Shown in pieces: positions 33,797-62,680 of a stretch of 64,000 bases of DNA. Source of the DNA: Chloranthus sessilifolius (taxonomy: Eukaryota; Streptophyta; Magnoliopsida; Chloranthales; Chloranthaceae); the NCBI GenBank assembly GCA_021018995.1, contig CM037590.1:68109597-68173596 (forward strand), in the 5' to 3' direction. Made by a program: the position numbers and the translations under genes. Position 1 is the stretch's first letter; each line of letters starts with the position of its first letter. A model generated the notes under the pieces. That model was not told the origin of the DNA and ran no database searches. It saw nothing but the letters and a program-made list of their open reading frames with translations.

Positions 33797-33919
33797 CTGG
33801 CACAACTAATAGTTGCGCCAGACTTAGAAATAGTAAAACAATGTTCCTACAGTGCCTGGAAGTTGGCTCGTTGAGGTGAGGTCCACCTTTATAATTGGCA
33901 CAATTATTAGTTACGCCAA
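33797..33919. promoter_or_regulatory. Palindrome pair upstream of LTR promoter, left
   Basis: Two 25-bp near-palindromes (33797-33821 and 33895-33919; arms CTGGCRCAACTA and TAGTTGCGCCAG around one central base), centres 98 bp apart, 280-400 bp upstream of the - strand TATA box. Confidence 0.85.
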
Positions 33920-35824
33920 AACCCTAGGGGGGCTCAACAATATTTATCATTTTGCCCTTCGATTTCGGAATGCGATATCTTCTCGCACACAACTCCGATT
34001 GGGGTGATTCTTGGCTTGTTGGAAAGCTGAGGACTTCTACTTTTTAATGGTATGAGATTTGATTATAGTAAAAAGTCACAGCTAGTCCTAGTGCATCACT
34101 CTTCATCCATTACTCGGAAAAGGGCAGGGATGGGTTTCTAAGGGTTTGAGAAGGTTCCTAAGGGATTTAGGGTGATTCCTAAGGGTTTTGAATGGATCCT
34201 AAGGTTTCAGAAAAGTTCCTAAGGGTTCCATACATGCTATCAAAAGCTCGGAGATGCGCCTCTCTCGAAATGTGTCTCGATCGGGCCTTGGGCCAAATTT
34301 GGGTGTCTATAGATGCCCCTCTTTGGTATCTGATCACTAATGATCGAGTGCCAAAGAGACATCCAAAGAGGCCCAAGGCATTATTGATGGGTCTGCTGCA
34401 TTCAGAACGACCTTCATATCAGATGAGTAACAAAAGCCCAGTATGTCGGGAAAAATGGTCGTTTCTTAAGGTAATCGGTCCCCAAGCGCTTAGCGACATT
34501 ACAAGACAAGGGGTTAGCGACATTACTGGACATAATCGAGTTGAAAAATGAGTTGCGAAAGCTCAATAGCTAGAAAAAATGGTCGCCTCTCGAGATGTTT
34601 TGAAGGAGTTTGATGTTCAAGATTCATTCTGAATACAACAACTTCGTAACTTAGGAGGGTGATCGACCCACATTCAAAGATAGGCGTAAAACAAGTATAC
34701 AAGGTTCCACAATTTGTGTCCAATCATTTGAGGCATTGACCGCCTCATCTGACTGGTCACAGGTGTCCTTGCTTGAAGCAGAGTTCGAGGTCTTTGGGCG
34801 AACCCATTGATCCTGAAGTTTATTTTAGCACGACTACTCGAGTAGAGCGAACATATGTCACAACTCTTTTTGAGAGTATGTGCTACTTTTCCAATGTGCC
34901 CCGGATCATCATGACCCAGAGTATCCAACCTCAAATGACACAGAATAGATCCGGCCAAAATCAGGTACCCCCCGAAGGGGACACCTAATCTTGGTCTCTG
35001 CCGATAATGGTCCTATAAATCATTTAATTATGCATAAACATTCACTCATTAGGGGCGATAAGCAACAAAGGTGATAAAAGTCTCAACCTAGATCCCGTCT
35101 GGGTATGATTTACGAGAATAAATGACCATCTTACGGATACCCAGATGCATGGCGTACACTTTACAGGGATATCGTGCCAATACAGGTTTTAAGATTGTGA
35201 AAATAAGGGAAATGAACCCTTCTGCATGCATGTTTATACATAGTTTGATTGACATGTAGTTTCATTTTTAATAGGTTGGTTTCAACCAATGATTGACCTT
35301 TTTCATAATGGAGTTTCCCGGACCTCAAACCCCGTAGGGCGCACGCCTGGATAGTGCAAACCAAAAGTCCACACCTCCAAAATAGCTCGTGATGAATATG
35401 AAGTTAGACACTCATGTTCCTATGAATCCAAAGACAGAGCGCTTAGCTCAAAAATTTAGCAGTGGAGTCGACCCTGGCCGAAATATTGATCGTCTGACCG
35501 AGATTGACATCGTTGCCTCTACTTCGAAGTAGGATCCAAAAATCTAAGGCGAACCTTAGACTTAGGGCATTCATATAGCACAACTGTATTCCCGATAAAA
35601 TATTGACATTTAACCGCATCGGAACACGTATCTGCATAGCTGTGCATCCAATCATACGAGGCATAGACCGCCTCATTTAATTGGTCACGGGTGTCCCTGC
35701 TTGAAGTAGGGTTTGAGGTGTATGGGCGAACCCATTGATCCCGAAACTTATTTAGCATGATTACCCGAGTGGAGCGAATAGATGTTGCAACACTTTTTGG
35801 GAGTACGTGCGGCCTTTTTAAAAC

Positions 35825-36215
35825 ATACATTTTTATAATTTTATGTGAAATTTTTTTACCTTTTTGTTTTTGATCATTTTATGTGATTTTTTGGATTTTA
35901 AGTTATCATTTTATGTAATTTTTTTTTATTTGAAGTCATCATTTCATGTGATTTTATCACTTTATTATTTCTATTATTTTGTACGAATTTCTTTTGGGAT
36001 TTTCTTTACCTTTTTTGTGGATTTTTTTTTAGATTTTTAAGTTATCATTTTATATGATTTTTATTTTTATTTTTTAAAGCTATCATTTTATGGGATTTTT
36101 TGGTTTTTTCAAAACTATCATTTTATGTGAATTATTTTATCATTTTATGTGAATCATTCTATCATTTTATGTGAATAATTTTTAGCTTTTTATGTGAGAT
36201 TTTTTCATCATTTGT
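35825..36215. repeat. ATCATTTTATGTGA degenerate repeats, left copy
   Basis: About a dozen copies of ATCATTTTATGTGA with T-rich spacers of 10-25 bp. Present also at 57785-58200. Confidence 0.75.
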
Positions 36216-36423
36216 TAAACTTTTTCACATTTTTCTGTGTAGGATCGGGATGCCTATTGATCTTGATCCATTTTATTCTAGCACGGCTTCTCGGATAAGT
36301 CGAATGAGGATCGACACACCGTTTGGGAGTACGTGCATCGGCTGAGAGTAATAAGACAAAGAGAGGGGGGGACCGGGTTATGCAGGCGATCCGTACCAGG
36401 CCCAAAACTCGACTTATAAGTGG

Positions 36424-36496
36424 CTGACATAACTATTAGTGGCGCCAAGCCAAAAGATGGCTCAAAATAGCTTGACGCAACTATTAGTTGCGCTAA
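36424..36496. promoter_or_regulatory. Palindrome pair upstream of PMD gene, left
   Basis: Near-palindromes at 36424-36448 and 36472-36496, centres 48 bp apart, just upstream of the weak TATA-like AAATTTAAG (36512) and the inferred leader of the PMD gene. Confidence 0.85.
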
Positions 36497-36905: not shown

Positions 36906-39583
36906 CTCTTTTTTGTGTTGTTTTTATTTGTACAGATAAGAAAGGGGTTTTTATTCTTGTTTTTTTGGTTTTGTTTTTTTAATTTGAACATAAAGCAAGG
37001 TTTTTTGGTTTTTTTGTTTTTTGAAAATTAATTAGAAAAAGGGATTTGTGGTTTCTATTTTTTGAAAATTAATTAAGGAAAATGATTTTTTTTATATTTC
37101 TATATATATTTTTTGAAAATTAACTAAGGGAAATGATTTTTGAGTTCTCTTGAAATTAATTAAGGAAATGGCTTTTATTGATTGAAAACTAACTAAGGCA
37201 TTGATTTATTATTATTATCTATTTTTTTTGTGTTGGCTTTTTGATTTTATGGGCATAATAAAAAAAAAAAGGGGGTTCCCTTTTTTGTGTTTTTTGTTGG
37301 AGTTTTCTTGTTTTCATAAGCATAAAAGAAGGGCCCTTTTTTTGGGGGGGTTTTGATTGTTAGAAGCATGAAGGAATGATTTTTTTTTACTTTTGTTTTT
37401 CTAAACATAAAAGAAGGATATTTCAGAAGCATAAAGGAATGATTTTTTTTGCTTTTCTAGACATAAAAGAAGGATTTTTTTTATTTTAGAAGCATAAAGA
37501 GCTGATTTTTTTATTTTAACTAGCTTCTTTTTCAAGGATAGAAAGGGGAAATTTGTTTTATTATTTTTTTTGTATTTATTTTTGAAGGTAAAAAGGAAGG
37601 GATTTTTTTTTTTCATTTTTATTCTAAAAGGATTTGTTTTGTTTATGTATGTGTGTATCTTTGTTTCTGAAAATAATTGAAAAATGGTGAGTATACTTAC
37701 CTTCCCTTGGCCTATAGCAAAAAATGTTCTTTATCACTGATATGCTCTGATGTGATTATTTTCTGTTGCCCCAGAATGTTCGACGACGAAGAGTACGTGC
37801 CTGAGGAGGGGCCCGATGTAGTCTATCGTCCGCGGGGGGAGCAGTTCTTTGTGATAGAGCGTAAGGCTGGTCCCTGGCTTGAGATGCAAGGCGAGGCCGC
37901 CCGAGTTTGCCTTCTTCATCAGCAATACATCCATATCTCTAACTTTGGCATAGCGGGCAAGGTAAAAGGTAAGTTCATTTCTTCCTTTTGTGTAACTTTA
38001 CTTTATTTCCATGAACTGATGCATTTTTCTCTTTTGACGCAAGCTTTGCCCCCTATTGTGTTCTGCGGGGGGTTGGTTGGACTTTCACGATTTTGACCGC
38101 TACGTTCCCCCTGTGGTGAAGTATTTGCTGGAGCAGGTGGGTTTTGGGGAGTTCCTATCCTACCCCCCACGAGGGCCGATGCCGCATACCCGAAGGCCCT
38201 GATAGAGCGGTTACGCCTAGAGACCATGACCTTCCACATGGCCTATGCTGGGATGACACTAACGCCCATATATTGGGCGATGATTACTGGCATCAGGGTA
38301 GGGGGCGTACCGATAGCCAGTCTTACGGTGCCTAGCAGGGAGGACATTGTTAGATTCATAGGGGATTATCTCCCTCGTGACAAGATGACCTGGTTATCTG
38401 GGGCTTTATGGGACCAGCGAGTTGGTAGATCTGGGCCAGCCAAATCTAGAGCTTTATATTGAGCCCGCACGGGAGATCGTCTTGGCCCGCGTCACTCTTC
38501 TGCCCCTCTTAGGCAAGCCCCTCTTTACCAACGCGAGCAGTGGACGAGTCAGCTTGGCATTACTACGCATTATGGATAACTGGTTCGATATCCAAAGGTA
38601 TGACTGGGGCGGGGCCGAATATGCGGCATTGATATATGGCATAGCCCGAGTGTCTATCGGGGAGGCCAAGTCTGTGGTTGGTTTTTGGCCGGCATTGGAG
38701 GTAATCTCTAACTCTTTCGCTTTCATCAGTTTTACTTGGATGGTCTTTGTATGCTACTGACTTATTTTTCTTGTGCACTGCTCTCCTTAGGCATGGGGGT
38801 GCCTCCACTTTCAGCTTGGGCGCCCGCTTCTCCACTCTGAGGTATTCACCTACCCTCTCTTGAGCAATTAGAACCAATCCCGACACCATGACGTGGGCAT
38901 GAAGCACCTAGAGATGGGCTTGAGGTCCCAACTGGATTTGATGGTCCCTGAGCAGGTAAGGCCTTTTCACCTTTGTCTATTTCAGTTTGGCAATTCTCTT
39001 TTGTAATTATGCTACATGTTTTGACTGATTGGCCGCCTCTTGACTTGGACAGATTCTCTATGACCCGTACCTTACCTCCATTTTATGGGACCGGGCTGTC
39101 GTAGGTCCATCACGCTTATTCAACAACCGCCACGTGGTCTTCTTCTACGGGGTGTGGGCCAGGGCTTACTTTCTGGGGGAGCGGGTAGTGCACCAGTATC
39201 AGGGCAATCCCACCATACCTATGGACCCTCCTACCGATGTTTTGGATCCTGTCAGTAGCATCGAGGAGCTCAGTGCGGCTTTCCTTCATAATGGGATCCC
39301 CATTAATGCCCTTCTCATCCCCGGAGACTATCAGCTATGGCATGAGTCTCAGCTGTATCGGTTCCTTCTGCCGCGCTTTGTCTCTAGCGGCAACTTCCTT
39401 GCTTTTGGTGGCCCGCGCACTCAAGTAATACTCCTTTCGCTTTCAAATTAGTCCCCTTTTTGGTTTCAATTCAGCTTTGGTTCCTACTGAGCAATTCTCT
39501 ATTTTGTTCACAGTTTTTCCAAGGAGACGACTCGGGTGATGAAGGTAGGGTGGCGGCGCGTACTGCTGATACTTCAGGGGCGG

Positions 39584-39675
39584 GTGCTGGCCCTTCCGGT
39601 GCGGGTCCCTCAAGTGTGGGTCCTTCAGGTGTGGGTCCCTCAGGTGAGGGTTCTTCAAGTGCTGGTCCGTCGAGT
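39584..39675 (+). repeat. Minisatellite encoding Gly/Ser/Pro repeats
   Basis: Repeats of about 15 bp (GGTCCNTCAGGTGTG-like) encode GPSGVGPSGEG-type sequence in the PMD gene. The corresponding stretch at 61560-61640 has a different copy number. Confidence 0.7.
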
Positions 39676-39968
39676 ACTTCTCATGTGGGTGCCCTTGGTG
39701 GTGTTTCGCCCGTGGTCCATGGGACCTTCAGACGCCTCGACGATAGCTTTCTCCCCGGTCTATGCACTGATGTGGATAGGCAGGCTCACATCTCAATTGA
39801 GGCGGCTCGGGTCCCTCCTCCTGACGTGGTTCAGGGGGTAAGCCTTCTTACGATCATTCTTTCTTTGTTTTGGCTCCTTTGATAGATGCATGTGTTTGTT
39901 ACCAGTCCCTGCAACAGACATCCTTTCCCTCTGAATGTAGAATTTCGACTCGGCCATGGAACACGCTT

Positions 39969-40016
39969 CATATTATTGCAACCTTGCTGAGCCCTCAGCA
40001 AGGTTGCAATAATATG
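39969..40016. repeat. Perfect 22-bp inverted repeat in the PMD gene
   Basis: Arms 39969-39990 and 39995-40016 with loop GCCC. The left arm is native (compare 61944-61965, one difference). The right arm replaces about 110 bp that the right copy keeps (61966-62075: the end of one exon, an intron and an acceptor). Confidence 0.9.
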
Positions 40017-40430
40017 TGGCGTGCACACGCCAATGAGTCACACTCTTTGCTCAGCCGGATTTCGTAGGCGTGGTTTCGGGTAGGAGATATTCAGACCTTC
40101 CAGAGCTCCTCACGTCAGCGGAAGAAGTCGAAGGGCGCTAACAAGGATTAGGCCTTAGTTTATGCTTCTTGAACAATTTTAAAGATTTTGGGATAATTTT
40201 TAATGAGATTTCGCAAAGTTTGTAACAGATATTTGTAGCACTTTTTGGATGATTTTCTGTTTGGACATGCTTAGTGCTTTTCTTTGATTGTATGTTAGTC
40301 GACTGCTTGCAGGATGGTCTTGATGATTGCCCTTAAAAGTGGCCTCGAGGTCGCATGCCTTGGTGCGGGTTTCTCCTACAAAAAAATCCCCAAAAAGGTC
40401 CCAAAATGGCATAGAAGGGGGGGATTTGTG

Positions 40431-40502
40431 CTGGCGCAACTATTAGTTGCGCCAGGCTTAACCTGGGGAAATTTATACTGGCACAACTAATAGTTGCGCC
40501 AG
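40431..40502. promoter_or_regulatory. Palindrome pair upstream of DUF7745-like gene, left
   Basis: 40431-40455 is a perfect palindrome about a central T. 40478-40502 has one mismatch. Centres are 47 bp apart and the pair ends about 24 bp before a TATA-like CTTATATGC (40526-40534). Confidence 0.88.
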
Positions 40503-40534: not shown

Positions 40535-40667
40535 CCAAGACAACCCAATTTTTCCTTCTTTTCCGCTTGACTTGGCCTTTCAGCTGATTTTTCTTCTCTT
40601 GCTTTCCCAAGGGTGAGTCCATCAACATACATTGAATTATATATTTTTAAAAGATCTTTGTACGTCC

Positions 40668-42187
40668 ATGGACCTGCTTTCCAACCTCCCTTACATAGAG
40701 GGCTTGGAACCATTTTTCTCCTTTCTTTGGGCTTAGGGCCCAATTTTCTAAAAAGTTGGCTTGAGAGCTTGAATGAGGGTGAGCTCGTTGACCTGGAGCG
40801 GCTTGGACTATCACGTCTTCCCTTCTCCCTTGAGGTTCCTTCACGGTGGGACCTATTTCACACGACAACCTCATTTTGGGATATAAATGCCCATGTGTTC
40901 CATTTTGGGAAGCGGGAGCTAACTCCCACTCTTGAGTAGCTATCCAATTTGTCCGGCTTGAAGCTCCACCAAAGTCTCACAAGAGTCATGCCGAAGTCGG
41001 GTTACTCTAAATCCGTTCACCTTACCCTAGGTTTGAAGAAATTGGAGTATGAGAAAAGTTTCATTGGGGGGTGTTCGAGCAAATTCCTCAAACAACTTTT
41101 CAGTGACGAAAGTCATCGAAAATTGCTGATTAGGACTCAGTCTCATTTCAGAAGTCCTTTTCTTCACTGGTCTTTGTGACGTTTTAACCAAGTTGGTAGA
41201 GGGCCGATCAATGATGCACCTGGTCCGTACTGAATTATACCGATGCGTTGGTGCATTTGCTCTGGGTAAGGTGGAGAGCCTCAAGGGATGTCGTTTGCTG
41301 CTTCAGGTCTAGTTATGTGAGCATATCGATATCTTGGGACCCATGCCACGCTTTTATATTGCTCGAGGTGAGGCGACTCGATGCTTTTTTGGTAGGTGTC
41401 ACTTGCTTTCGCAGGACGATTTGTCAGCTTTGAAGCTTTAGTTGATCAATGCAGAGCTGATATGGAGACTTCCTTGGTTGGATCAGACCTTCCCAGTAGT
41501 TCATTCCAGAGACCATGAGGGCATCACCCTCCTAGGATTGACTGGAAACACCTTTTATTTCCCATTTCGAGTGTTGCGTCAGTTCGGCTGCTCTTAGCAG
41601 GTGCCTTGCGAGGCAAAACCCCCTCTATGTGACTTGATCTTTTTTAAGGGGTCCTCTGGGGACATGGATCAGATTGCTGCTATTTGGGAGATGCATCAGT
41701 AGATGCTGATGTGTGATATAGAGCAGAGAGATTCAATTAGTCTTCCCCTAAGTATGAGGCTTGCCTATTGGCTGAGCAGCCTGCTGCTAATCATCTGGAT
41801 CAAACGGAGATCATTGATATGGGAGGCCCCTGGCCGAAGAAGGAGACGGCGCTTCGAGCTTGCATTGAGCTTTTAGTTGATGAGAAGAGGGTCCTGCAAG
41901 AGATTTTAGCACAAGAGAAAGTTAGAGCAAAGGTAGTAGAGGCCAGAGTTGGCGTAGCTGAGAGCGAGGTCCTTCGTCCGAAAGGATCCTTGAATGTTGC
42001 TCATGGGGCTACTGATGCTTCTCGGAAGAGGTACGCGAGCTTGCATGGATGTTGGTTGACCGAGCGGAATGTCTGGGAGGATGGTTTTATCGTTGAGATT
42101 AGTGCCTTGAAGCGGAGCTGGGCTGTTGATTCCTTCCTGCACATACATCTTTTTGCACAGATAAAATACACAGAAAAAGGGGCGTAA
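40668..42187 (+). pseudogene. DUF7745-like gene, antisense to pol, left copy
   Basis: ATG 40668 opens MDLLSN, but the conserved frame (FLKSWLESLNEGELVDLERL, TSFWDINAHVFHFGKRELTP) is offset by a frameshift. Hydrophobic segments follow (LPWLDQTFPVVHSRDHEG-like near 41475), then a predicted coiled coil (ELLVDEKRVLQEILAQEK, about 41865-41925) before the end near 42187. The FWD..HVFHFG..ELTPTLE pattern resembles the DUF7745/PMD-related proteins common in plant retrotransposons. At least four stops or frame changes break it. No intron is required. The assignment is from motif memory only. Confidence 0.55.
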
Positions 42188-43599
42188 GAAACCCCTTTAT
42201 AGATACACACTTTTTTGTATACATATTTTCTTTATGTTTTTATTTTTTTACTTTTGTAAAAAAGAAAGAGGGAAAGCTAGACATCACACCGACTATTTTT
42301 TGGGATGTGGTGTAAGTAGTTCAGTTGTAAATGGGAAAGGAAAATCTATTATATTTATAAAGACTTTCTCTTTTTTTTTTTAAATTTATTAATGGGTCCC
42401 TTTAACAAAGAGGGCTTTCCACCCTGTTCTTTATTCTCTTTTTGTTTGGTTTGATGCCTCAATCACAGGGTGAGATCTCGGGTCCCATTCTGAGCATGGT
42501 TGAACCCCCTTTAAGTGGTCGGATCTGGGTGAACGCCAGTAGCTCTACCAAGACTGGAATGTCAATCCCTTTTGATTGAGTCAAACCTTTCTCCTGACCT
42601 TGAGTCATACATTCAACGAAGCAGTTCCATAAAGACAATTCTAGTCGGGGCCCGATTTGAACTAATATGAGCGGCCCAGCCGAAAAAAAGGGGATCGGGG
42701 AGAGCAACCAAGAGGGCTCCTCCAACATCAATCTTATCAATCATTTCAAACCTTTCTTCCTAACTTATTTTCCTTTTTAATTCCTTTTTTACTCATAATG
42801 CCCAAGGTGGGTTCGACATGCCCGTTTTTGCCCTCTTTTTATTTGTGGCGCCCTTTCGGATTTTCACCACGTCCATAGGTTTAGCTCTCTTATCCCAAGT
42901 GCCCTTTCGAGTTTTCACCTGGTCCGCACAAACTCGTTGTTTTTACTGGTAGTGCCCTTTCGAGTTTTCATCACATCCATCTTACTTTGAGCTTTTATTT
43001 TTATTAATTATTATTATCTTTTTTATATCTTTTTTTTTTAAAAGCCATGACATAAACGTCAATTCCATCATAGCCGACTAGATGGGGTTCTAGTGTCGTC
43101 TTACAACTCAGCTTGTGTTGACTTAACAGATACTATGATCGCTTGTGAACCTAAAAAGAGGGTTTTCTTCAGGGTGTAGCTTGGCCATGGGTTAGGTTAG
43201 GATTTGAAGGTATGCTGGGCTAAAAAGGGTTTCCTTGATATGACTTCAATTTTTCATAACACACTTCTTCCTTGGGGGATTTTTACTGTACAAGCCCCTA
43301 CGATTCTTCTATTTTTCTTTTTCCTTTGTTTTATTTCAGGCAATCTCTTTTTGAGGTTTGGCTTTTTTGATTTTTTTAGATTTTTTATAGTAATTCTATC
43401 CTCTTTTTTATATGTACACATTTTTTTGAGGGAGGGGGTTTATTAAAAGAACGGCTTAGGTTCAAATGGGTTAGCAAAGGATATCATCTTTTTCAGGGAT
43501 GCTTTTGGCTACTGTGCTTGGAATGATAGCCCCTTTTGGGTGGTTCTTAAGTAGTTAGGTATCTGTTTCACGAATACTTACCTTATTGCGATAGACTAA
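42188..43599 (-). other. Noncoding 3' region between pol and the antisense genes
   Basis: Contains three copies of a motif reading GGTGAAAACTCGAAAGGGCAC or a variant on the - strand (near 42850, 42905 and 42955), plus T-rich runs. Such sequence is usual downstream of pol in Tat/Ogre elements. If the LTR were about 10 kb its inner end would lie here (for example CA near 42745 beside a purine-rich - strand run). Confidence 0.5.
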
Positions 43600-43907
43600 G
43601 CGTAAAACCGTCAGACGTATCCAGCGTTGATGGGCTTAGAAAGATGATCTCTGTCCATGGTGGCGAGGAGGATGGAGTATCCCGATAGCATTTCTCGGAC
43701 GACGTAAGGTCCCTCCCAGTTTGGGTTGAATTTCCCTCTCGGATTGGCATGGAGGGATCGAAAGATCTTCAGCATAGTGTCTCCTACCTTCAGATCTCGA
43801 CCGCAGACACGTTTATTATAAGCTCGTGTGATTCGCCCCTGGTAAACTTGAGTATGACACAAGGGTAAGAGTCTTTTCTCATCTAATAAGTTCAATTATT
43901 CAAAGCG

Positions 43908-43945
<38 letters not shown>

Positions 43946-44811
43946 TTCGAGTAAGCTTGATTCCATGAGGATTCAGAGCGAGGGCACTTCAACCTCTACC
44001 GATAGGATTGCCTCGGCTCCATACACAAGGGGGAATGGTGTTGCCCCTGTAACGGTACGGATCGACATTCTATAGGCCCATAAAGCAAATGGCAGTATTT
44101 TGCTCTAATCTCGATAAGTGACGACCATTTTCTCGAGGATGCGGACGACTGCCTTATTCGCAGCTTCCACAGCTCCATCAATTTGAGGCCGATAAGGTGA
44201 CGAGTGATGGTGCTTGATCTTGTATTACTCGCAGAAGGTTCGAATGTGCTTATTCTCAAAGTTTGTGCCGTTGTCTGTGATGATTCCTTGGGTACTCCAA
44301 ATTGGCACACAATATTATTCTTAAGAAACTTCTCGACGTGATTGGTCGTGATGTTGGCATATGACGCCGCTTATACCCACTTGGTAAAGTATTCAATGGC
44401 GACAAGGATGAACCAATGTCCATTTGATGCTTTCAGATTAATCATTCTGACGATGTCAAGACCCCAGGTAGCAAATGGCCAAGGAGTGGTCATGTAGTGA
44501 TGATCGATGGCAGGAGCATGTATCAAACTAGAGTGTTCCTGACACTTGTAGCATTTTTGAATATGTTTGCAGCAATTTGATTCCATAGTGGTTCAAAAGT
44601 ATTCATGCCGTAGAATTTTCTTAGCGAGTATGTGACCGCTGACGTGGGCACCGCATACTCCCTCGTGAATCTCCTTCATGATGTTGGTCGCTTCACTTTC
44701 AGTAAGGCACCTGAGTAAAATATTATTGTATGATCGCTTGTAAAAGCAATAACTGCAAATGACGTCGCCTATCGCTAAACGTTGAATGGTTCGTCGATCC
44801 GTCTTGGACAT
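43600..44811 (-). pseudogene. Tat/Ogre integrase
   Basis: HHCC zinc region (EIHEGVCGAHVSGHILAKK, then CYKCQ) near 44690-44530. The first core Asp is in WGLDIVRMI (about 44480). The second, in IITDNGTNFEN, is reached only after a one-base frameshift near 44285. Glu is in DGAVEAANKAV (about 44160). A stop follows KWV at 44371. The C-terminal part (FNPNWEGPYVVREMLSGYSI, LSKPINAGYV) is at 43895-43611. A (CT)n run at 43911-43943 separates core and tail. Confidence 0.85.
43911..43943. repeat. (CT)n microsatellite within integrase
   Basis: Uninterrupted TC repeats of about 33 bp inside the former coding sequence. Confidence 0.95.
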
Positions 44812-44869
44812 ACCCTCAGGGAAAGTTAGTGTCTCAAGGAAATTCTTGATATCTAAGAACTAAGGCGGC

Positions 44870-45545
44870 TCATCATCAGGCTTTGTAGGTTCCTCAATCT
44901 GGAGGAGAAGGCCGGCTCATTCCTTTACTCGATCATGATCGGCTTCATCTCAGTACCATACAGGGTTTCTATCATTGATGCCAATGTTGCTAGTGCGTCG
45001 GCAAAGCGATTCCTTATCCGGGGGACATATGAGAATGTCACGTCTTCAAAGCAAGCTATCAGATCCTTGAGGTGTTCATGGTAAGGGATCAGTTTCTCGT
45101 CTTTTATCTTCCAATCTCCATTCGTTTGGCATATGATCAACTGAGAATCACCGAATACTCGGAGGTGAGTTACGTTCAGATCGAGAGCCTCTTGTAAACT
45201 ACCGACACAAGCTTCATACTCGGCCATATTGTTAGTGCAAGGAAAGTTGAGCTTGATAGAGATTGGTATGTGAGATCCTTTTGGCAAAATTAGAATGGTG
45301 CCAACTCCCTAACCCTCAGCATTTGCTGTCCTGTCAAAGTGCATTACCCATGATTCCTTTGCTTCATCAGTATCATCTTCCGTCATGAACAGGATGTCCT
45401 TATCAGGGAATTCGATTCTCAAAGGCTCATAATCTGGTAAAGGATTGTTGAGAAGATGATCGGCGAGTGCCTGCCCCTTGATCGACTTCTGAGTGACGTA
45501 CTTGATGTCAAACTCATACCATAAAAGCTGCCACCATGCGGTTCG
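44870..45545 (-). pseudogene. Tat/Ogre second (archaeal-type) RNase H
   Basis: The additional RNase H that marks the Tat lineage. The four acidic residues are visible in order: FDRTAN, NNMAEYEACVGSLQEAL, FGDSQLIICQ and NRFADALATLAS. An in-frame TAG after NAEG (about 45310) and another near 45540 break the frame. Confidence 0.85.
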
Positions 45546-48069: not shown

Positions 48070-48762
48070 TTTGAATGACCTTACTTTGTAAGGTATGAAC
48101 TTTTAGAAGTTGATAATGCTTTTTCTTTCTTCGAGAGATAGCGACATTCCGATCTTGGTAATTCGGGGAATCTCCTCAATTTCCAGATTGATATCTTCTG
48201 TTTCTTCGACGATGGGGTACAAACCGGTCAAGGAGCTCATTGGAGAGCTCCTCCAAAGGGATATCCTCGTCCAGACTCGTAACACCTACCTCTTCTTGTA
48301 TTTCTACAGGAAAGGGGTCGATTTTACGTGGGACGGGTATTAAGGCATCTTTTTGTGGGATTTTATTTAGAATTTTAAATGACAATATTTTTGGACTTTA
48401 TATTTTTTCAATATTTTTGAAAATTTTATTTTCTTCGGAGATGGACCCTTGGCAGCGCGAATCTGCGTATATATAAGGTATTGCTTGCCAATGGCTTATC
48501 TCACTTTTTATAGGTTTTATTTTTGAGAAACGGGTGCCAAATGTTAGGCCACTCCCTGCTTCTAGGGTTTGGGGCAAAATGCCCAGTTGTGTACTTTAGA
48601 GGCCGCTCCTTTACCTATTTGGATGGAGGGTGTTGACTGATACGGCTCTTCGGAGTCAGCCTCCATCATGTTGATCCCCATTTCATTTGAGATGATATCC
48701 TCAAACGTTAACACAGTTTTGTGGTGATTCACCACAGGGAGAGTTTGTTCAAGTACAGACCG
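48070..48762 (-). pseudogene. Linker between protease and RT
   Basis: Decayed pol linker with EDIPLEELSNELLDRFVPHR (48385-48176) and EIPRITKIGMSLSLEERKSI (about 48200-48110), the usual lead-in to Tat RT. Frames change several times. Confidence 0.6.
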
Positions 48763-49800: not shown

Positions 49801-49806
49801 GCTAAC

Positions 49807-51825
49807 CTAAAGTGATACATGTGTATTTTTTAACGCCCTTATTAATGCGTGAAAATAGAGTGAGGACATCATTAACAGATCCCACACAGTGATATGGGTA
49901 GACATTCTTCTCAGTTGAGTCTCCAATATATCTTCTCGACTCATTTTTTCAAACGGATTAACAACACTATCTTTCTTTCCCTTTGGTTGGGCCTGTGCTG
50001 CTGCTGGTGCTTCTGACTTCTTTGAAATCTTCCTAGATTGGGTCACAAAGTCCACTGCCCCTTCTCTGTTGCCATCAACATTGATATCTGTTTGTTCATA
50101 ACTCAGTGAGACCTGATGAGGATCATAGGTAGGTCTCAAAATTTGGAATGATATAGCTGCTGGTATCAGATGTACTTGTACTGCAGACTCCAGAGGTGTG
50201 GGTAACACTTGATTCACTTTGGTGATAGCTAGTTGGGTGGCAAAATTGGGCCAGATGGGGGTGGTGAAGCTTGTGGGTGGTGGCACCGGGGGAAAAGGGG
50301 TAAGAGTAGGCTATTGGTGGCTGATCAGTGTTGGCGGGGGATTAAGGGCATGATGGGCTATTGGGTAATTGATAGGGGTGGTGGTGTATGGTTGATATGC
50401 ATTTATATACATATAATTAACAGGAGTGGGCGATGGGAAATAAGTCCTAAGATCTAAGGGTTCGATTCGTGATGCTGGGTTGGGAAAATAATCCGATAAA
50501 TTCAAGGGTTTAATCACCCTAATATTCCTTTCTTCATAATTTCTCGACAACGGTGCCACATATCTCTCCCGATCATTGATGTAATCCGACGAATCAAATT
50601 CAAATTCCTCCTCACACTCCTCTATCATCCCAATAGTGGGTCTGGGACCTGCTCCTCCGATAGGATGTGGGGGTAATGACACCTGATGAATATTCGCATG
50701 CTGGTTCACTTGAGAAGGTGCTGGTGGAATAATTTTTCCAACATCGATTAAATCTTGAATTGTGTGCTTCAATGGGAAGCAGCGATCAGTCGGGTGACCC
50801 GGACCCTGATGAAAGTTATAGTGAGTATTAGGGTCATTATTCTTTTGGATCGGGTGAGGAGGAGGTTGCGGTTAACGAACAGTAACTAATCCCTTTTCTA
50901 TTAGTAAAGGTAAAAGTACACTTAGAGATTACCCTAGGGGTGTAAACACTCGGTCATAGCAGGCTCTCCTCTGCTCCGGAGTCATCTGGATTCCTTGTCA
51001 ATTCCCTGCTCTCTGCATCTGCTTAGTTCTGACTGGCGCTGGCTGGGATGCTTGAAAATGGAATGGGGTTATATTATTATTGGGCCTGGTATTGGCAATG
51101 TTCTGGATATCGGCCCCTGTTATTTAATCGTTCCTCTATACTAAAAACCTTCTAACCCCACTGGCTCCACTTGGTATGTTCTTATTTAGGCGACCTTCCC
51201 TGATGGCATCTTCACAACGATTGGCGTTCCTCACCAGATCAGTAAAGCTGGATTACTACTGGTATACTAAAAAGTCTGAGATTACTGGTAGAGTATTCTT
51301 AGAAATCATTTCAATATGTTCATCATCAGGTATCCTGTTTCTAACCTGAACTTCCAATGCTCTCCAATGCCCCAAATAATCACTAAAGGTCTCATTCAGG
51401 TTCTGCTTCAAACGGGCCAAGTCTGACTTATGTGGTTCAATGTCTATATTGTAGACATATTATTCTTGAAACAAATGCGTCAAGTCTTTCCATGTTTTCA
51501 TCATAGATGGTTCCAAAGATGTAAACCATCTCAAAGCAGGATTGGTCAAACTTTTCTGAAAGACCTTTATCAATAGTCTTTTGTCCCCTCCATATTGGCA
51601 CATGTCCCCATAATAAGACTTGAGGTGTGCTATGGGATTGCCGGTGCTGTAGTACTTGTCAAAAGCTGGCATTTTAAATTTGGGAGGCAAGGGGACCTCA
51701 GTGAACAAACATAAATCTGTGAAGTCCGTGGCGTGGATTTCGGCAACACCCATTTTCAACAACTGTTTGTAAATTTTGTCCAACTGTTCTTTCAACTGTT
51801 CTGATTCTTTGGATATGGGGGCCAC
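49807..51825 (-). pseudogene. Tat/Ogre gag core and nucleocapsid-like region
   Basis: Capsid motifs at 51825-51460 (KFKMPAFDKYYSTGNPIAHL, YYGDMCQYGGDKRLLIKVF, ALRWFTSLEP). Near 50815 FHQGPGHPTDRCFPLKHTIQ is the degenerate zinc-knuckle motif of Tat gag. A low-complexity linker follows, then VVNPFEKMSREDIL and ITVWDLLMMSS (about 49950-49860), a conserved block before the protease. Several stops and frameshifts lie in between. Confidence 0.82.
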
Positions 51826-51957
51826 ATTCTCAGCAGTTGGTTGGACTTCACTCTGGGCTACAGGGGGTGGGCAATTATAGGAGGAGGGTTAAGGCTGGTT
51901 AATTCCCTAGCATAGGCTCCACTATTTCTAATATCATCCTCTTCATACTGCTGGTCT

Positions 51958-53505
51958 TTATAGAGTGCAGTGAGGGCGGGGTTCTCTTGCTGGTGCTGTA
52001 TGGACTGGATGAGAATGACATGAATGGGGGTTGGGTGAGCCTTTTGGGGATGAGAGAAAGTTTGTTGTATGATAGGAGGAGTGGAAGCCAGATTTTAGAG
52101 TGGGGCCTGATGAGGCCATTGGGCCTAGGGAAAGGCTTGAAACTGTCCTTGGGATGTTGGATATGGGTGAATTGGGGTTGATGTAAGGCATGGGTTTGAG
52201 CAAGGTATGAGGGTTGTGAGTGGGTAAAATTTTAGAGCAGTTGTGAAGGGTATGAGTGTGAGGCTCGAAGGTTTTGATGGGCTTAGGTTTGGGCCATGAA
52301 GCCTTGGGAGGGTTGGGCTATGAAGGTTTGGCCTATGCGTCCTTGGGAAGCTTGGGCCACAAAGCCTTGGTCATAATAGCTGTGTGCTAGGGGGCCTTGG
52401 TGGGTTTGGGTCATGGGCCATTGATGGGTTTGGGCCATGGGCCCTTGATGGGTTTGGGTCATGGGCCATTGGTGGGTATGGCCCATTGGACCTTTAGGGG
52501 TCTGGGCCATGGGCGGGGTCACGGGTTTTTGGGCTATGGGGCCTTGGGGTATGTGGGAAATGGGGGTTTGGGCCATTAGGCCTTGGGATATGTGGGAAAT
52601 GGGGGTTTGGATAGTGTGAATGATGGGGGGTTGATGGGGGTCATAGGGGAATGAGGCATGGAGGGTTGATAGGGTATGGGATGGATCCATAGGTGTGTGG
52701 TGTGGATGAGAGGGAATGTGTTGGGAGACCTTCCACCTATTGTAGGTTTGAAACATCTCCTCTATCATGGCCATGGTAGGGGGATCAGATGGAGATAGGT
52801 TATTTGATGGTTGGAGGGGTATGGATGGGGTGTGTGAAGAGGAAAAATTAGACATGACCCCTATAAAATCGGGCATGACCTGAGTAAGAGGTGGGATATG
52901 GGGTGGATTGGAGAAATGAGGTGGGGCATGGGTGGATGAATTAGGTATGTATGGGGCATGGAGGTGGAGAATGAGAGAGGAAAGTTGCTCATGTCTTCGG
53001 AAGGGATGAGCATGACTTGGGTAAATGGAGGGATGTGTGGGCGATTGGATGTGGTATGAATGGATGTGGGTGAATCGAGTTGGGCGGATGAAAAATAGGG
53101 TATGTTGGTTAAGGTAGAGGGTGGGTTTTGAACGAGTGTGAGAGGAAGGTGAGATGGGTTGGGGATGGCCATGGATGAAGGCATGGCTTGGGAAAATAAA
53201 GGAAAATTTAGATTTTGGTTATTTTGGGAAAGGTGGAAGGAAAAATAGGGGCACCGAACGGGCCGATTATGGTGAGGGTTGATTGGGCAAGGGGGGTGGA
53301 AGTAAAGACTTTTTTGGTATGGGAATGAGTTGGAGAATGTGGTGGGGATGAGTCGGGATCGGCATAAGCCGGGGTCCACAGCCCATGACATATCTTGGTA
53401 TCGGGTTGGGTACGGGTGCCTCGGATGGGGCCCGTAAAGCTTCCTCCTTTCTCCTCTAAGGGATGATGGAGGGTACGATGATGCCGTTGTGCCGGTACCA
53501 ATCAA
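51958..53505 (-). pseudogene. Pro/Gln/His-rich ORF upstream of gag core
   Basis: Open stretches 53505-52861 (214 codons) and 52876-52283 (197 codons) in different frames, then 52203-51958. They encode proline-, serine- and histidine-rich sequence without a known fold and include a short helix (TMAMIEEMFQTYNRWK) near 52770. The end is built from an 8-residue repeat (HQGPMAQT). This is either an N-terminal gag extension or the extra ORF1 of Ogre elements; I cannot decide which. Confidence 0.6.
52290..52620 (-). repeat. 24-bp coding minisatellite
   Basis: Degenerate 24-bp units (GGGCCATGGGCCCTTGATGG and variants) encoding QGPMAQTH/QWPMTQTH. They are cleanest at 52400-52490. Confidence 0.8.
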
Positions 53506-53882
53506 GACTCTATTTTTAGGTTTTTATTTTTAATTAATTTTTAAAAAAATTTTATGAATGAAATGAAATGAGGATTTCGGGGCCCTTTGAATTCCCTTCT
53601 CGGGTGACTCTCGCACCCTAAATATGTCCCGCGATAAAGGTTTTGAAGCGCTTTGAAAGGATCAAAGGGAAACCTTTTGATCTATTAAAGGCACGGAAAC
53701 TAATGCAAACAACTCAATCCCCTGAAATGAATTAAAATGAAGTCACCTTCTTTTGACTGGCGAGGGCGTATTGGGTGTCGAAAGTTTCGGGGCCTAAACA
53801 GAGGCACCAAAAATATTGATCGGGGAGTCCGGGATGTGAAGCAGGCATCCAGATTCAGGCTGTTGCTGTGTACCATTTTATG

Positions 53883-53954
53883 CTAGCGCAACTAATAGAT
53901 GCTCCAGTGTAAATTTGAGGATTTTTGGCTTGGTGCAACTATTAGTGGCGCCAG
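53883..53954. promoter_or_regulatory. Palindrome pair in leader, upstream of gag-side ORF
   Basis: Near-palindromes at 53883-53907 and 53930-53954, centres 47 bp apart, more decayed than the others. About 380 bp before the - strand ORF start at 53505. Confidence 0.75.
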
Positions 53955-54767: not shown

Positions 54768-54785
54768 TCCCCAGCGGAGTCGCCA
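54768..54785 (-). other. Primer binding site, tRNA-Arg type
   Basis: TGGCGACTCCGCTGGGGA on the - strand, two bases from the LTR end at 54788. This is the form found in Ogre-type elements, where the primer is tRNA-Arg. Confidence 0.8.
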
Positions 54786-55500
54786 TTTGTACAACCGTGA
54801 GATTTTTGATGATCCCGTCGTGATGACTCGCTAATAAAAATTTAAAGTTGCCACCTAGAGCTTTTGGTATCTCGAGAAATCTAGATCAATTTTATAAGCA
54901 CCGAAGTGCCATAAATATGACCCTGAATCCGGTCTACGCCAAAGGTCTTAGGTAGGGGCTTCGATTATCCATTGGGAAGGTGTTAGGCACCCAATCAACC
55001 CACTTAATGCGGTCTCTACTTATGGTGAAAACAAAAATAATATAAAAGAAAAGAAAAAGCCTTTCTCTTATCTAAAGGATCTTAAAATCCTATTTGTGCC
55101 CCTCCGTTCATACCAAAAATTTAACGGCGTAATGGCACAAATGAGTGGATGGAGGAAGGATTGAGAAGGTAGAGGAACAGAGGGGAGAGACGGAGCTCTC
55201 AGGCCCTTGTTGCATCGCTGTGGAGTCTTGCGTTGGCTTGCTTCGGTGAGCTTTTGAAGGCTTGTATGGTGAGAAATGAGGTTCTAACTCCTAAGGCTTG
55301 ATAGCTAAGAGATAGAGAGGGAAGGCTAGGAGGTAACACACACCTAACCTAGAGCTTTTGGGTGAAATTCTAAGGTCTAAGGGAAGCTTTAAAGTTTTGG
55401 AATTTGTATGAGAATGGTGCACTAGAGGAGAGAGAGAAGGGATTCCTTAATCTCTTAATTGCAAAAATTTTCAAGCCTTTGTAAAGGGAGGGGTGCCTCT

Positions 55501-55510
55501 CTATTTATAG
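55501..55510 (-). promoter_or_regulatory. Tat/Ogre LTR TATA box, right copy
   Basis: CTATAAATAG on the - strand, identical to the left copy. Confidence 0.65.
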
Positions 55511-55791
55511 GAAAAAGAGAGGTTAGGAAGGTGCTTAAAAGCTAATTTGGATTAGCAATTAGGTAATGGGCAATCTACGGTTTCCTATGGTTTTTGGATC
55601 CTTGAAAAGTGTGAAGAGTTGCTCCAACGGTGGATGTTAGGGTAGAGCTTTAAACTACTTAAGAAGTTGCACATAGATAGTAAATGGGTGCAACAGAACT
55701 ATCAAAATATACCCCAAAGGTCAAGATGGTCAATAAGTCAAACCCTAATCTCTAAATTTGAGGTAAAGAACCAGGGTTACTATTCATAATC

Positions 55792-55914
55792 CTGGCGCAA
55801 CTAATAGTTACGCCAGGCTTAGGAATAGTAAAATAGTATTCCTACAGTGCCTGGAAGTTGGCTTCCCGAGGTGGGGTCCACTTTTATAACTGGTGCAACT
55901 ATTAGTTGCGCTAA
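55792..55914. promoter_or_regulatory. Palindrome pair upstream of LTR promoter, right
   Basis: 55792-55816 and 55890-55914, centres 98 bp apart exactly as in the left copy. Confidence 0.85.
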
Positions 55915-57784
55915 AACCCTAGGGGTTCCACAATATTTACCATTTTGCCCTTCAATTTCAGAATGCGATATCTTCTCGCACACAGCTCCGATTGGGGTGA
56001 TTCTTGGCTCATTGGAAAGCTGGGGACTTCTACTTTTCAATGATATAAGATTTGATTATAGTTGAAGGTCATAGCTAGTCTTGATACACCACTCATCATC
56101 CATTTCTTGGGAAAGCTAGGTTTAGGTCCGGAATGAGTTCTAAGGGTCGGGATGGGTTTCTAAGGATTCGGAAAGGTTCCTAAGGGATCTTGGGTAATTC
56201 TTAAGGGTTTGGAATGGCTCCTAAGGTTTCAGGAAGGTTCTTAAGGGTTCCATACATGCCATCAAAAACTCGAAAATGCGCCTCTCTCAAAATGTGTCTT
56301 GATCGGGCCTTGGGCCAAATTTGGCTGTCTACAGATGCCCCTCTTTGGTATCTGATCACTGATGATCGAATGTCAAAGAAAAGAGACATCTAAAGAGGCC
56401 CAAGGCATTACTAACGAGTCTATTACATTCAGAATGAACTTTAAATATCAGATGAGTAACATGGTGAGAAAATGAAAGCCCAGTTTGTCGGGAAAAATGG
56501 TCGTTTCTCAAGATAATCGGTCCCCAAGCGCTTAGCGATATTAGTGGGCATAACGAAAGTGGAAATGAGTTACGAAAGCCCAATAGCTTGGAAAAACATT
56601 TGCTTCTTGAGATGTTTTGAAGGAGTTTGATATTCAAGATTCATTCTGAATATAACAGCTTCGTAAGTAAGGAGGGTGATTGACCCACATTCAAAGATAG
56701 GCCCAAAATAAGTACGTAAGGTTCCAAAGTTTACGTCCAATCATATGAGACATTGACCGCCTCATCACACTGGTCATAGGTGCCCCTGCTTGAAGCAGAG
56801 TTTGAGGTCTTTGGGCAAACCCATTGATCCCAAAGTTTATTTTAGTACGACTACCCGAGCGGAGCGAACAGATATCACAACGCTTTTTGGGAGTATGTGC
56901 TGCTTTTCCAATGTGCCCCGGATCATCATGACCTAGAGTACCCAACCTCAAATGACATAAAATAGATTTGACCAAAATTGGGTGCCCCCCGAAAGGGACA
57001 CCTAATCCTAGTCTCTGCCGATAATGATTCTATAAATTATTTAACTATGCATAAACATGCACCCATTAGGGGTGATAAGCAACAAAGGCGATGGAAGTCT
57101 CAACCCAGATCCTGTTTGGGTATAATTTACGAGAACAAATGACCATCCTACGAATACCTAGACGTATGGCGTACACTTTAAGCCTGCGGAAATAAGGGGA
57201 ATGAACCCTTCTGCATGCATGTTTACATGTAGTTTAATTTATATGTAGTTTCATTTTTAACAAGTTAGTTTCTATTAATGATTGACCTTTTTCATAATGG
57301 AGTTACCCATACCTCAAACCCCGTAGGGCCCACGCCCGGACAGTGCAGACCAAGAGTCCACACCTCTGAAATAGCTCGCGATCAATATGAAGTTAGACAC
57401 TCACGTTCCTATGAATCCAAAGACAAAGTGCTTAGCTCAAAAATTTAGTAGTGGAGTCGACCCTGGCCGAAATATTGACCGTCTAATCGGGATTGACACC
57501 GTTGCTCCTACTTCGAAGTAGGATCCAAAAATCTAAGCCGAACCTTAGACTTAGGACATTCATATACCGCATCGAAACCCGCATGTGCGTAGTTGTGCGT
57601 CCAATCATACAAGGCATAGACTGCCTCATTTAACTGGTCATGGGTGTCCCCGCTTGAAGCAGGGTTCGAGGTCTTTGGGCGAACCCGTTGATCCCGATAC
57701 TTATTTAGCATGATTACTCGATCAGAGTGAATAGATGTCGCAATGCTTTTTGGGAATACGTGCAGCATTTTTGAAACATACATT

Positions 57785-58396: not shown

Positions 58397-58469
58397 CTGG
58401 AGCAACTATTAGTTGCGCCAAGCCAAAAGAGGGCTCAAAATAGCCTGGCGCAACTATTAGTTGCACCAA
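58397..58469. promoter_or_regulatory. Palindrome pair upstream of PMD gene, right
   Basis: 58397-58421 and 58445-58469, centres 48 bp apart, followed by the TATA-like AAATTTAAG at 58487. Confidence 0.85.
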
Positions 58470-61900: not shown

Positions 61901-62207
61901 TCCCTCTAAATGTAGAATTTTGACTCGGCCATGGAACACCTTACATATTATCGCAACCTTGCTGAGCTCCAAGACATGGAGGGGGTGAGTATTCTGCAGA
62001 CCCGCTGTTCTCACTGGTTTACTATCTTTTGTTCCTCAATTGATCCTGATTTTTTATTTTGACTGTGACTGGCAGCATGCACACGCCAAGGAGTCGTGCT
62101 CTTTGCTCAGCCAACTTTCGCAGGCGTGGTTGTGGGTAGGAGATATTCGAACCTTCCAGAGCTCCTTGTGTCGGCGGAAGAAGTCGAAGGGCGCCAACAA
62201 GGATTAA
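58538..62207 (+). pseudogene. PMD gene with introns, antisense to pol, right copy
   Basis: Same structure as the left copy: leader exon to 58677, then coding exons 59729-59914 (ATG 59730), 59996-60666, 60757-60921, 61019-61390, about 61480-61812, 61916-61984 and 62076-62207 (stop TAA 62205-62207). Exons 60757-60921 and 61019-61390 equal their left counterparts in length. The PMD core is FHMAYAEMTLTPVDWAMITD near 60187. This copy keeps the penultimate exon and intron lost on the left. Damage: TAG for Gln at about 59797, stops near 60053 and 60835, TAG for Trp near 61052, and an acceptor changed from CAG to CAA at 61477-61479. Many of these are transitions, as expected from methylated cytosine. 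Confidence 0.75.
58858..58897. repeat. (TA)n microsatellite in PMD gene first intron, right copy
   Basis: Longer version of the run at 36884-36905. Confidence 0.9.
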
Positions 62208-62608
62208 GCCTTAGTTTATGCTTTTTGAACAATTTTAAACATTTTGGGGTAATTTTTATTAGAATTTTGTAAAGTTTGTAACAGATATTTGTGGCACTTT
62301 TTGGATATTTTTTGTTTGGACATGCTTAGTGCTTTTCTTTGATTGCATGTTATCTCTCCCTTACATATATCCGACTGCTTGCAGGATGGTCTTGATGATT
62401 GCCCATAAAAGTGGCCCTCGAGGTCGCATGCCTTGGTGCGGGTTTCTCCTACACAAAAAATCAAATTATTTCAATGTTAGGTGCCCTTTTAATTTTCATG
62501 TTTGAATGTCTTCATAGTATAAAGCAGGTGAATCAGGCTAACTGGCTGAGGGGGCTAGCAAGGGCCCACAAAAATCCCAAAAAGGTCCCAAAATGGCATA
62601 GAAGGGGG

Positions 62609-62680
62609 GATTTGTGACTATTAGTTGTGCCAGGCTTAACCTGGGGAAATTTATATTGGTGCAACTAATAGTTGTGCCAG
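62609..62680. promoter_or_regulatory. Palindrome pair upstream of DUF7745-like gene, right
   Basis: The first site has lost its left arm (right arm TAGTTGTGCCAG at 62622-62633). The second is at 62656-62680. Centres are 47 bp apart as on the left. Confidence 0.75.

What the first reader, a model, noticed from the sequence alone, without database searches (positions are those of the whole stretch)
33797..62680. Paired 25-bp palindromes in front of every transcription unit of the Tat/Ogre element
I find 14 sites made of arms CTGGCGCAACTA and TAGTTGCGCCAG around one central base, in seven pairs centred at 33809/33907, 36436/36484, 40443/40490, 53895/53942, 55804/55902, 58409/58457 and 62621/62668. 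Spacings are 98, 48, 47, 47, 98, 48 and 47 bp, conserved between copies that have otherwise diverged by 10-15%. The pairs lie upstream of the LTR TATA box, the antisense PMD gene, the antisense DUF7745-like gene and the gag-side ORF. Constant spacing near whole or half helical turns suggests dimeric protein binding. Arabidopsis VANDAL transposons encode VANC proteins that recognise short motifs in their own noncoding DNA and counter silencing. My inference is an analogous circuit, with the PMD or DUF7745-like product as a candidate binder.
Basis: partly seen in the sequence, partly recalled or inferred. Interest (0 to 1): 0.88.

Follow-up and report, generated by a model that had tools for sequence, protein, structure and literature searches.

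The report
Paired palindromes at a retrotransposon's promoters
A long plant jumping gene carries the same pair of 25-letter mirror-image DNA sites in front of each of its recognisable genes, probably docking sites for a two-part regulatory protein that switches its genes together; similar boxes are known in another family of jumping genes, and which protein binds these is unknown.

Summary
All 14 sites exist at the stated centres and spacings: 13 full palindromes (0-5 mismatches) and one (62609-62633) that lost 8 bp of its left arm. None is expected by chance. They lie in an Ogre/Tat-type Ty3/gypsy element on the minus strand (LTRs 32790-34311, 54788-56333) with two antisense PMD-class genes. 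Three of the seven pairs are a second copy, so there are four independent positions: LTR U3, ORF1 leader, PMD gene 1, PMD gene 2. The three internal modules look like one duplicated 72-73 bp cassette in the same gene-ward orientation. Boxes stayed nearly identical while spacers diverged, which argues for function while the family was active; between the two decayed copies, however, boxes change at the neutral rate. Best reading: a shared cis-regulatory module for a dimeric factor. The closest precedent is the Sirevirus palindromic RM boxes (LTR and upstream of env), not VANC. A PMD protein as binder is possible but untested: no usable structure model, no DUF1985, only a loose parallel with the MAIN/MAIL1 'DOWN' motif. 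Genome-wide and cross-species tests could not be run; the genome search did not complete 19 times.

The parts
33797..33821 (-). palindrome, 3' LTR U3 (gene-ward second)
   Evidence: 1 mismatch
33895..33919 (-). palindrome, 3' LTR U3 (gene-ward first), 98 bp from partner
   Evidence: 5 mismatches, all C/T or G/A type
36424..36448 (+). palindrome 1 upstream of PMD gene 1
   Evidence: 5 mismatches
36472..36496 (+). palindrome 2 upstream of PMD gene 1, 48 bp from partner
   Evidence: 4 mismatches
40431..40455 (+). palindrome 1 upstream of PMD gene 2; the one perfect copy
   Evidence: 0 mismatches
40478..40502 (+). palindrome 2 upstream of PMD gene 2, 47 bp from partner
   Evidence: 1 mismatch
53883..53907 (-). 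palindrome downstream of PBS, upstream of ORF1 (gene-ward second)
   Evidence: 3 mismatches
53930..53954 (-). palindrome upstream of ORF1 (gene-ward first), 47 bp from partner
   Evidence: 3 mismatches
55792..55816 (-). palindrome, 5' LTR U3 (copy B of 33797)
   Evidence: 1 mismatch
55890..55914 (-). palindrome, 5' LTR U3 (copy B of 33895)
   Evidence: 3 mismatches
58397..58421 (+). palindrome upstream of second-copy PMD gene 1
   Evidence: 2 mismatches
58445..58469 (+). palindrome upstream of second-copy PMD gene 1
   Evidence: 2 mismatches
62609..62633 (+). decayed site: 8 bp of the left arm deleted, right half-site kept
   Evidence: 8 mismatches ungapped; 8-bp deletion relative to 40431-40455
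62656..62680 (+). palindrome upstream of second-copy PMD gene 2
   Evidence: 3 mismatches
32790..34311 (-). 3' LTR (about 1.52 kb)
   Evidence: homologous block; ends read by eye in the sequence
54788..56333 (-). 5' LTR (about 1.55 kb), shared with a second, partial element to its right
   Evidence: ends TGTAGACA..TGTACA read by eye in the sequence
54768..54785 (-). primer binding site TGGCGACTCCGCTGGGGA
   Evidence: read in the sequence 2 bp below the LTR end; tRNA-Arg assignment recalled
37760..40150 (+). antisense PMD gene 1 (decayed, several exons)
   Evidence: PMD 5.8e-4 in 38097-38459, under the curated cut-off; copy B 59701-62200 PMD 4.4e-11, over it
40560..42200 (+). antisense PMD gene 2 (PMD/DUF7745-like, decayed)
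   Evidence: copy A PMD 6.7e-5, under the cut-off; copy B 62703-63998 PMD 3.1e-12, over it, DUF7745 6.2e-5, under it
52283..53523 (-). ORF1 region, proline-rich, no Pfam match
43600..51900 (-). gag-pol region, decayed; gag (51463-51888) and G-patch (48766-49464) only weak, under the cut-off; RNase H strong at 45549-45983 and 44928-45308

Best explanation
The pairs are a shared cis-regulatory module of an Ogre/Tat-type retrotransposon. Each module is two copies of a 25-bp dyad-symmetric box (12-bp half-sites around one A/T), 47-48 bp apart at the three internal positions and 98 bp apart in the LTR U3. Each box is most likely bound by a protein dimer, and two boxes allow cooperative binding at or near a promoter. 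One factor could thus switch the genomic RNA and the two antisense PMD genes together, as one regulon. Shown here: the boxes, pairing, positions, cassette-like duplication with the same gene-ward orientation, and conservation of the boxes over their spacers. Inferred: dimer binding, promoter or enhancer function, co-regulation. Undecided: whether the binder is a host transcription factor (slightly favoured) or a PMD protein of the element.
For: 14 sites, all in pairs, 0 expected. All four module positions lie in non-coding DNA on the 5' side of a recognised unit and none in gag-pol. Spacers of the ORF1 and PMD modules are related in the same gene-ward sense (ORF1 vs PMD1 16-17 of 24, p 4e-4 to 8e-4; ORF1 vs PMD2 13 of 22, p 6e-4 to 1e-3; 5000 letter shuffles each, not corrected for the ten comparisons); the same ORF1 comparisons with one spacer reversed give p 0.066-0.22. 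Of 12 outer 40-bp flank comparisons, 11 have p above 0.05, so the cassette ends at the palindromes. Taking either copy's base, the six two-copy palindromes differ from consensus at 0, 1, 1, 1, 0, 0 of 25 positions, while spacers between the internal positions are only about 48-71% alike: constraint before the copies died. TATA-like motifs lie at +25 (PMD2), +18 (PMD1), +1 (ORF1) and +281/282 (LTR) from the module edge; the PMD1, PMD2 and LTR ones are in both copies (chosen among several TATA-like matches per position). Precedent: Sirevirus palindromic RM boxes upstream of the LTR TATA and of the internal env gene (PMC2829016, section 9).
Against: No expression, binding or chromatin data. Between the two copies the palindromes diverge as fast as context predicts (24 seen, 19.7 expected; P(simulated at or below observed) 0.90); without the half-deleted site it is 21 of 125 positions. 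The LTR module has a different 73-bp spacer with no detectable relation to the others (16 comparisons, lowest p 0.06) and no hidden middle site, so module geometry is not uniform. PMD1 versus PMD2 spacers are only marginally alike (p 0.07-0.10). TATA-to-module distances differ widely, and other TATA-like matches exist. Only one element family was available, and the either-copy comparison favours the consensus.
Confidence: 0.66

Rival explanations
1. Element-encoded circuit: one of the two PMD-class proteins, as a dimer, binds the boxes and activates or de-silences the whole element; works like VANC but with another protein class.
For: Both antisense genes are PMD-class. A long C-terminal helix, coiled-coil-like, is among the better-modelled parts of two intact relatives. 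Arabidopsis PMD proteins MAIN and MAIL1 are needed for genes carrying a promoter motif ('DOWN') (PMC7156037, PMC9899485, passages). [quoted passage not shown]
Against: No DNA-binding fold shown; models unusable as a whole (mean pLDDT 51.0 and 44.9). Dimer formation by the window's own genes was not tested. The DOWN motif as given for MORC1 (CATGCAGTTT) is not this palindrome. Those papers themselves leave open whether PMD proteins touch DNA. No test of covariation between box and PMD sequence was possible.
Confidence: 0.25
2. Host factor: the boxes are sites for a host transcription factor dimer (for instance stress-related) used by the element, as with Tnt1 BII boxes; no element protein is needed.
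For: Tnt1 LTR BII boxes bind defence-induced factors (PMC3316501, passages); Sirevirus RM boxes mainly recovered stress-related factor sites (PMC2829016, section 9). Explains modules at several promoters without new biochemistry.
Against: I recognised no known plant factor site in the 25-mer (from recall; no motif library was searched). No box with fewer than 8 mismatches in the 32.7 kb left of the element, though host genes at large were not searched.
Confidence: 0.42
3. No function: a short repeat cassette duplicated by chance within the element, carried along.
For: Spacers show the internal cassettes are related copies. Two-copy divergence of the boxes is neutral. About half of recently active Retand (Tat) elements carry tandem-repeat arrays (PMC11963269, abstract).
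Against: Boxes stayed near-identical while spacers diverged to about 48-71%; placement 5' of all four recognised units and not in gag-pol; both arms kept.
Confidence: 0.15
4. RNA-level role: each pair folds into hairpins in the genomic RNA (packaging, dimerisation) or feeds small RNAs.
For: The two boxes of a pair can also pair with each other (25-nt arms, 96%, PMD2 pair). All four positions, U3 of the 3' LTR included, would lie in a full-length genomic RNA.
Against: No Rfam match at the gathering threshold. It does not explain why the pairs sit on the 5' side of the antisense genes as well as of ORF1. Not tested further.
Confidence: 0.06

Closest known systems
Sirevirus repeated-motif (RM) boxes (Ty1/copia), PMC2829016
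   Same: Dyad-symmetric palindromes repeated in the LTR upstream of the TATA box, and again upstream of an internal extra gene (env); RM clusters start 200-400 bp into the LTR, here the pair lies about 392-541 bp in; internal promoter proposed.
   Different: Ty1/copia, many short copies (8-32 per element), mostly with a CGG-CCG core, with CpG islands. Here Ty3/gypsy, exactly two 25-bp boxes per position, GCGC flanks with a CTAWTAG centre, four positions, two of them at antisense genes.
VANC/VANDAL anti-silencing (PMC5735166, PMC10398659)
   Same: Short motif repeated in non-coding DNA next to the element's genes; element carries accessory genes.
   Different: VANDAL DNA transposons; VANC has DUF1985; 9-bp YAGTATTAY arrays in one orientation, not palindromic pairs.
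Antisense accessory genes of Tat elements (Grande gene23, Retand TRP28 ORFs; PMC7264820, PMC11963269)
   Same: [quoted passage not shown] a regulatory role has been proposed.
   Different: The passages I saw name no PMD and no paired palindromes at promoters.
MAIN/MAIL1 PMD proteins and the DOWN motif (PMC7156037, PMC9899485)
   Same: PMD-class proteins tied to a promoter motif.
   Different: Host genes (PMD-C clade); the motif given for MORC1 (CATGCAGTTT) is unlike this box; direct DNA contact unproven.
Tnt1 BII boxes (PMC3316501)
   Same: Boxes in the LTR that bind nuclear factors.
   Different: LTR only, as far as the two passages show; host defence-induced factors; Ty1/copia (recalled).

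Membership tests
Ogre/Tat Ty3/gypsy | PMD-class extra gene (57% of Ogre elements, PMC6317226, one passage) | tested here: met
Ogre/Tat Ty3/gypsy | dual RNase H | tested here: met
   RT_RNaseH 45549-45983 and RVT_3 44928-45308; feature as told in PMC9289625 (passages)
Ogre/Tat Ty3/gypsy | PBS complementary to tRNA-Arg | tested here: inconclusive
   TGGCGACTCCGCTGGGGA at the right place; the tRNA match is recalled, not aligned
Ogre/Tat Ty3/gypsy | reverse transcriptase tree position | not tested
   no tree was built; the RT region seems broken by an insertion near 46.8-48.1 kb
VANC/VANDAL system | DUF1985-containing VANC protein | tested here: not met
   no DUF1985 listed in the gene pieces and frames scanned or in five relatives
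VANC/VANDAL system | same-orientation short-motif arrays at high density | tested here: not met
   two palindromes per module
VANC/VANDAL system | loss of DNA methylation when the protein is expressed | not testable with these tools
   no methylation data
Sirevirus RM boxes | palindromic boxes in LTR upstream of TATA | tested here: met
Sirevirus RM boxes | further boxes upstream of an internal extra gene | tested here: met
   modules upstream of PMD1, PMD2, ORF1
Sirevirus RM boxes | CGG-CCG core (all but one of 13 elements) | tested here: not met
   consensus CTGGCGCAACTAWTAGTTGCGCCAG
Sirevirus RM boxes | Ty1/copia host element | tested here: not met
   RNase H and PMD content point to Ty3/gypsy Tat

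The most novel reading that the evidence does not exclude
The two Gypsy-type PMD proteins are sequence-specific dimeric regulators (perhaps a heterodimer) that recognise the paired 25-bp palindromes and switch on or de-silence every promoter of their own element: a retrotransposon regulon with self-encoded activators, which would give a DNA target for PMD proteins and an LTR-retrotransposon counterpart of VANC.
Probability: 0.2. Interest if true: 0.88.

Novelty: new variant of a known kind. Interest (0 to 1): 0.52.

Why it matters
In one survey PMD was the most frequent atypical domain of plant LTR retrotransposons (PMC9289625, passages), and MAIN/MAIL1 show that host PMD proteins control genes and transposons, yet in the passages I saw no DNA target of a PMD protein is established. 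A discrete box repeated at all recognised units of a PMD-carrying element offers a ready probe for that question and makes 'what do antisense accessory genes of Tat elements do' directly testable.

Tried and rejected
Hidden middle site in the 98-bp LTR pair, which would make it a three-unit array: rejected, best match 14-15 mismatches, p 0.83 and 0.99. Other palindrome families: an inverted-repeat search of 32.78-42.3 kb and 48.1-54.8 kb (the rest of the element was not searched this way) listed the PMD2 pair, a 30-bp hairpin at 39962-40023, an AT microsatellite and four other short or AT-rich imperfect palindromes; it did not itself list the other box pairs, which have more mismatches. Known RNA families in 32.7-64 kb: none at the gathering threshold. 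Solved structures matching a DUF7745 relative (P0001): none. Two AlphaFold models of relatives (P0001, in an alignment of 22 of the 27 found proteins plus the window's own fragment; P0012, in an alignment of 18 of the 27) were too poor to search (mean pLDDT 51.0 and 44.9), so no fold search was run. A third homology search with the alignment brought no new proteins. Virus collection: box pattern 0, pair pattern 0, and of 17 stretches matching a pol pattern none was confirmed. Prokaryote genome collection: box, 0. Neither collection is expected to hold plant elements. Papers: the 13-letter cores were in 0 papers; a search on Ogre, palindrome, promoter listed 13 papers, whose titles and abstract starts did not describe such boxes; a search on autoregulation listed one meeting report. 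I saw no report of this box, within those searches only. The helical-phasing argument was set aside: 4.5 and 9.3 turns do not agree. An earlier thought that U3 and antisense positions exclude an RNA role was dropped: they too lie in the genomic RNA.
Full report
What is there. The palindrome CTGGCGCAACTA-W-TAGTTGCGCCAG occurs at all 14 stated places. Ten sites have at most 3 mismatches, against none in 100 shuffles. Thirteen have at most 5; the fourteenth (62609-62633) has 8, because 8 bp of its left arm are missing relative to the left-hand copy. Every site is in a pair with the spacings given. Of 26 half-site matches in the window, 25 fall inside these sites. The one other hit at 8 mismatches (6891) is single.

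The setting. Self-comparison shows two homologous stretches, 32789-41763 and 54787-64000, in three blocks of 85-86% identity. Reading the ends by eye gives LTRs of about 1.5 kb on the minus strand at 32790-34311 and 54788-56333, with a primer binding site just inside the right-hand one. The right-hand stretch goes on past that LTR into a second set of 3' genes, so the window holds one element of about 23.5 kb plus part of another sharing an LTR. On the minus strand two RNase H domains are clear and a gag match is weak. On the plus strand, between pol and the 3' LTR, lie two antisense genes. The first matches PMD (5.8e-4 in copy A, under the curated cut-off; 4.4e-11 in copy B, over it). The second matches PMD better than DUF7745 (3.1e-12 against 6.2e-5 in copy B), though its intact relatives from Hibiscus, Gossypium and Pterospermum match DUF7745 better. 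PMD in Ogre elements is known (57%, PMC6317226, one passage), and Gypsy elements have their own PMD clades A1 and A2 (PMC5418596, passages). The element is therefore of a known kind. I did not build a reverse transcriptase tree.

How many independent cases. Because the right-hand stretch is a copy of the left, the seven pairs stand for four module positions: LTR U3, ORF1 leader, PMD gene 1 and PMD gene 2. The three internal modules are 72-73 bp long (the right-hand PMD2 copy has the 8-bp deletion). Their spacers are related in gene-ward orientation: ORF1 with PMD1 16-17 of 24 identical, p 4e-4 to 8e-4; ORF1 with PMD2 13 of 22, p 6e-4 to 1e-3; PMD1 with PMD2 only p 0.07-0.10. With one spacer reversed the ORF1 comparisons gave p 0.066-0.22 and the PMD1-PMD2 ones 0.25-0.42; the two copies of the PMD1 spacer compared in reverse gave 0.02. 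Of 12 comparisons of outer 40-bp flanks, one (ORF1 with LTR, upstream) reached p 0.04 and the rest did not reach 0.05 (all; letter shuffles, no correction for multiple tests). The LTR spacer is 73 bp, holds no middle site and shows no detectable relation to the others in 16 comparisons (lowest p 0.06). The picture is one cassette, ending at the outer edges of the palindromes, copied to three internal positions, with a wider version of the pair in U3.

Evidence for and against selection. Between the two copies the six comparable palindromes differ at 24 of 145 aligned positions (16.6%) against 10.2% overall; 22 of the 24 are transitions. Three of the 24 fall in the half-deleted site, where the alignment is ambiguous; without it the count is 21 of 125. 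Allowing for cytosine context, 19.7 changes are expected for the 24 seen, so there is no sign of constraint since these copies parted. That is the result for decayed copies and goes against any claim of present function. The other comparison is between positions: taking whichever copy keeps the consensus base, the six palindromes differ from the consensus at 0, 1, 1, 1, 0 and 0 of 25 positions, while spacers between the internal positions are about 48-71% identical. This comparison favours the consensus by design, but the gap is wide, and it is best explained by constraint on the boxes while the family was active. The single ORF1 copy has 3 mismatches in each box.

Position. TATA-like motifs lie 25 bp after the PMD2 module and 18 bp after the PMD1 module in both copies, 1 bp after the ORF1 module (one copy only), and 281-282 bp after the LTR module. 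There are others: PMD1 has TATAAG just upstream of its module and the LTR has TATAAA inside its module, both in both copies, and several more occur further downstream. These are consensus matches, not mapped starts.

Mechanism. I judge a shared promoter module for a dimeric regulator most likely (0.66). Odd-length dyads with 12-bp half-sites and two boxes per position suit cooperative binding by dimers; that is inference. The binder is undecided. A host factor is slightly favoured because the one plant LTR box with named binding factors that I saw uses host factors (Tnt1 BII boxes, PMC3316501, passages). The element's PMD proteins are the more interesting candidate. Both antisense genes are PMD-class, relatives have a long C-terminal helix that is among the better-modelled parts, and host PMD proteins MAIN and MAIL1 are needed for genes with a promoter motif called DOWN (PMC7156037 and PMC9899485, passages). 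The DOWN motif as printed for MORC1 is not this box, and those authors leave open whether PMD proteins contact DNA.

Compared with what is known. The nearest precedent is the Sirevirus repeated motif: palindromic boxes upstream of the LTR TATA and again upstream of the internal env gene, with an internal promoter proposed (PMC2829016, passages and section 9). The element here does the same kind of thing in another superfamily, with few long paired boxes and with antisense PMD genes. It fails the Sirevirus features of CGG-CCG core and Ty1/copia host. The VANC comparison holds only in outline: no DUF1985 was listed, and VANC21 motifs are short, in one orientation and dense (PMC5735166, passages). 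Antisense genes with their own promoter are known in Grande (PMC7264820, passages). I found no report of this box, within the searches.

Limits. The source genome could not be searched, so specificity, age dependence and covariation with PMD are untested. The virus and prokaryote collections returned no locus and were not expected to. The verdict rests on one window.

Noticed in passing
56334-64000: A second, partial element (3' part with both antisense PMD genes) shares the LTR at 54788-56333 with the full element: a tandem LTR-internal-LTR-internal arrangement.
   Followed up: partly
39962-40023: 30-bp hairpin (93% complementary arms) in the left copy near the end of PMD gene 1, where the alignment with the right copy breaks.
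   Followed up: no
46830-48080: Probable nested insertion interrupting the pol region (by eye); 47450-48065 is 71% similar in inverted orientation to 32014-32620 just outside the element.
   Followed up: no
15350-32013: Block of many 0.1-2.2 kb direct repeats, about 77-99% alike, including a 722-bp pair at 97.5% and a 193-bp tandem pair at 98-99%.
   Followed up: no
22664-23127: Minisatellite whose unit contains the palindrome TCGATTAATCGA, an unrelated palindromic repeat.
   Followed up: no
36705-37786 and 40613-40668: Both antisense PMD genes seem to have a splice donor within about 110-210 bp downstream of the palindrome module, and gene 1 an acceptor just before its first ATG, suggesting a 5' leader intron (read by eye, untested).
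   Followed up: no
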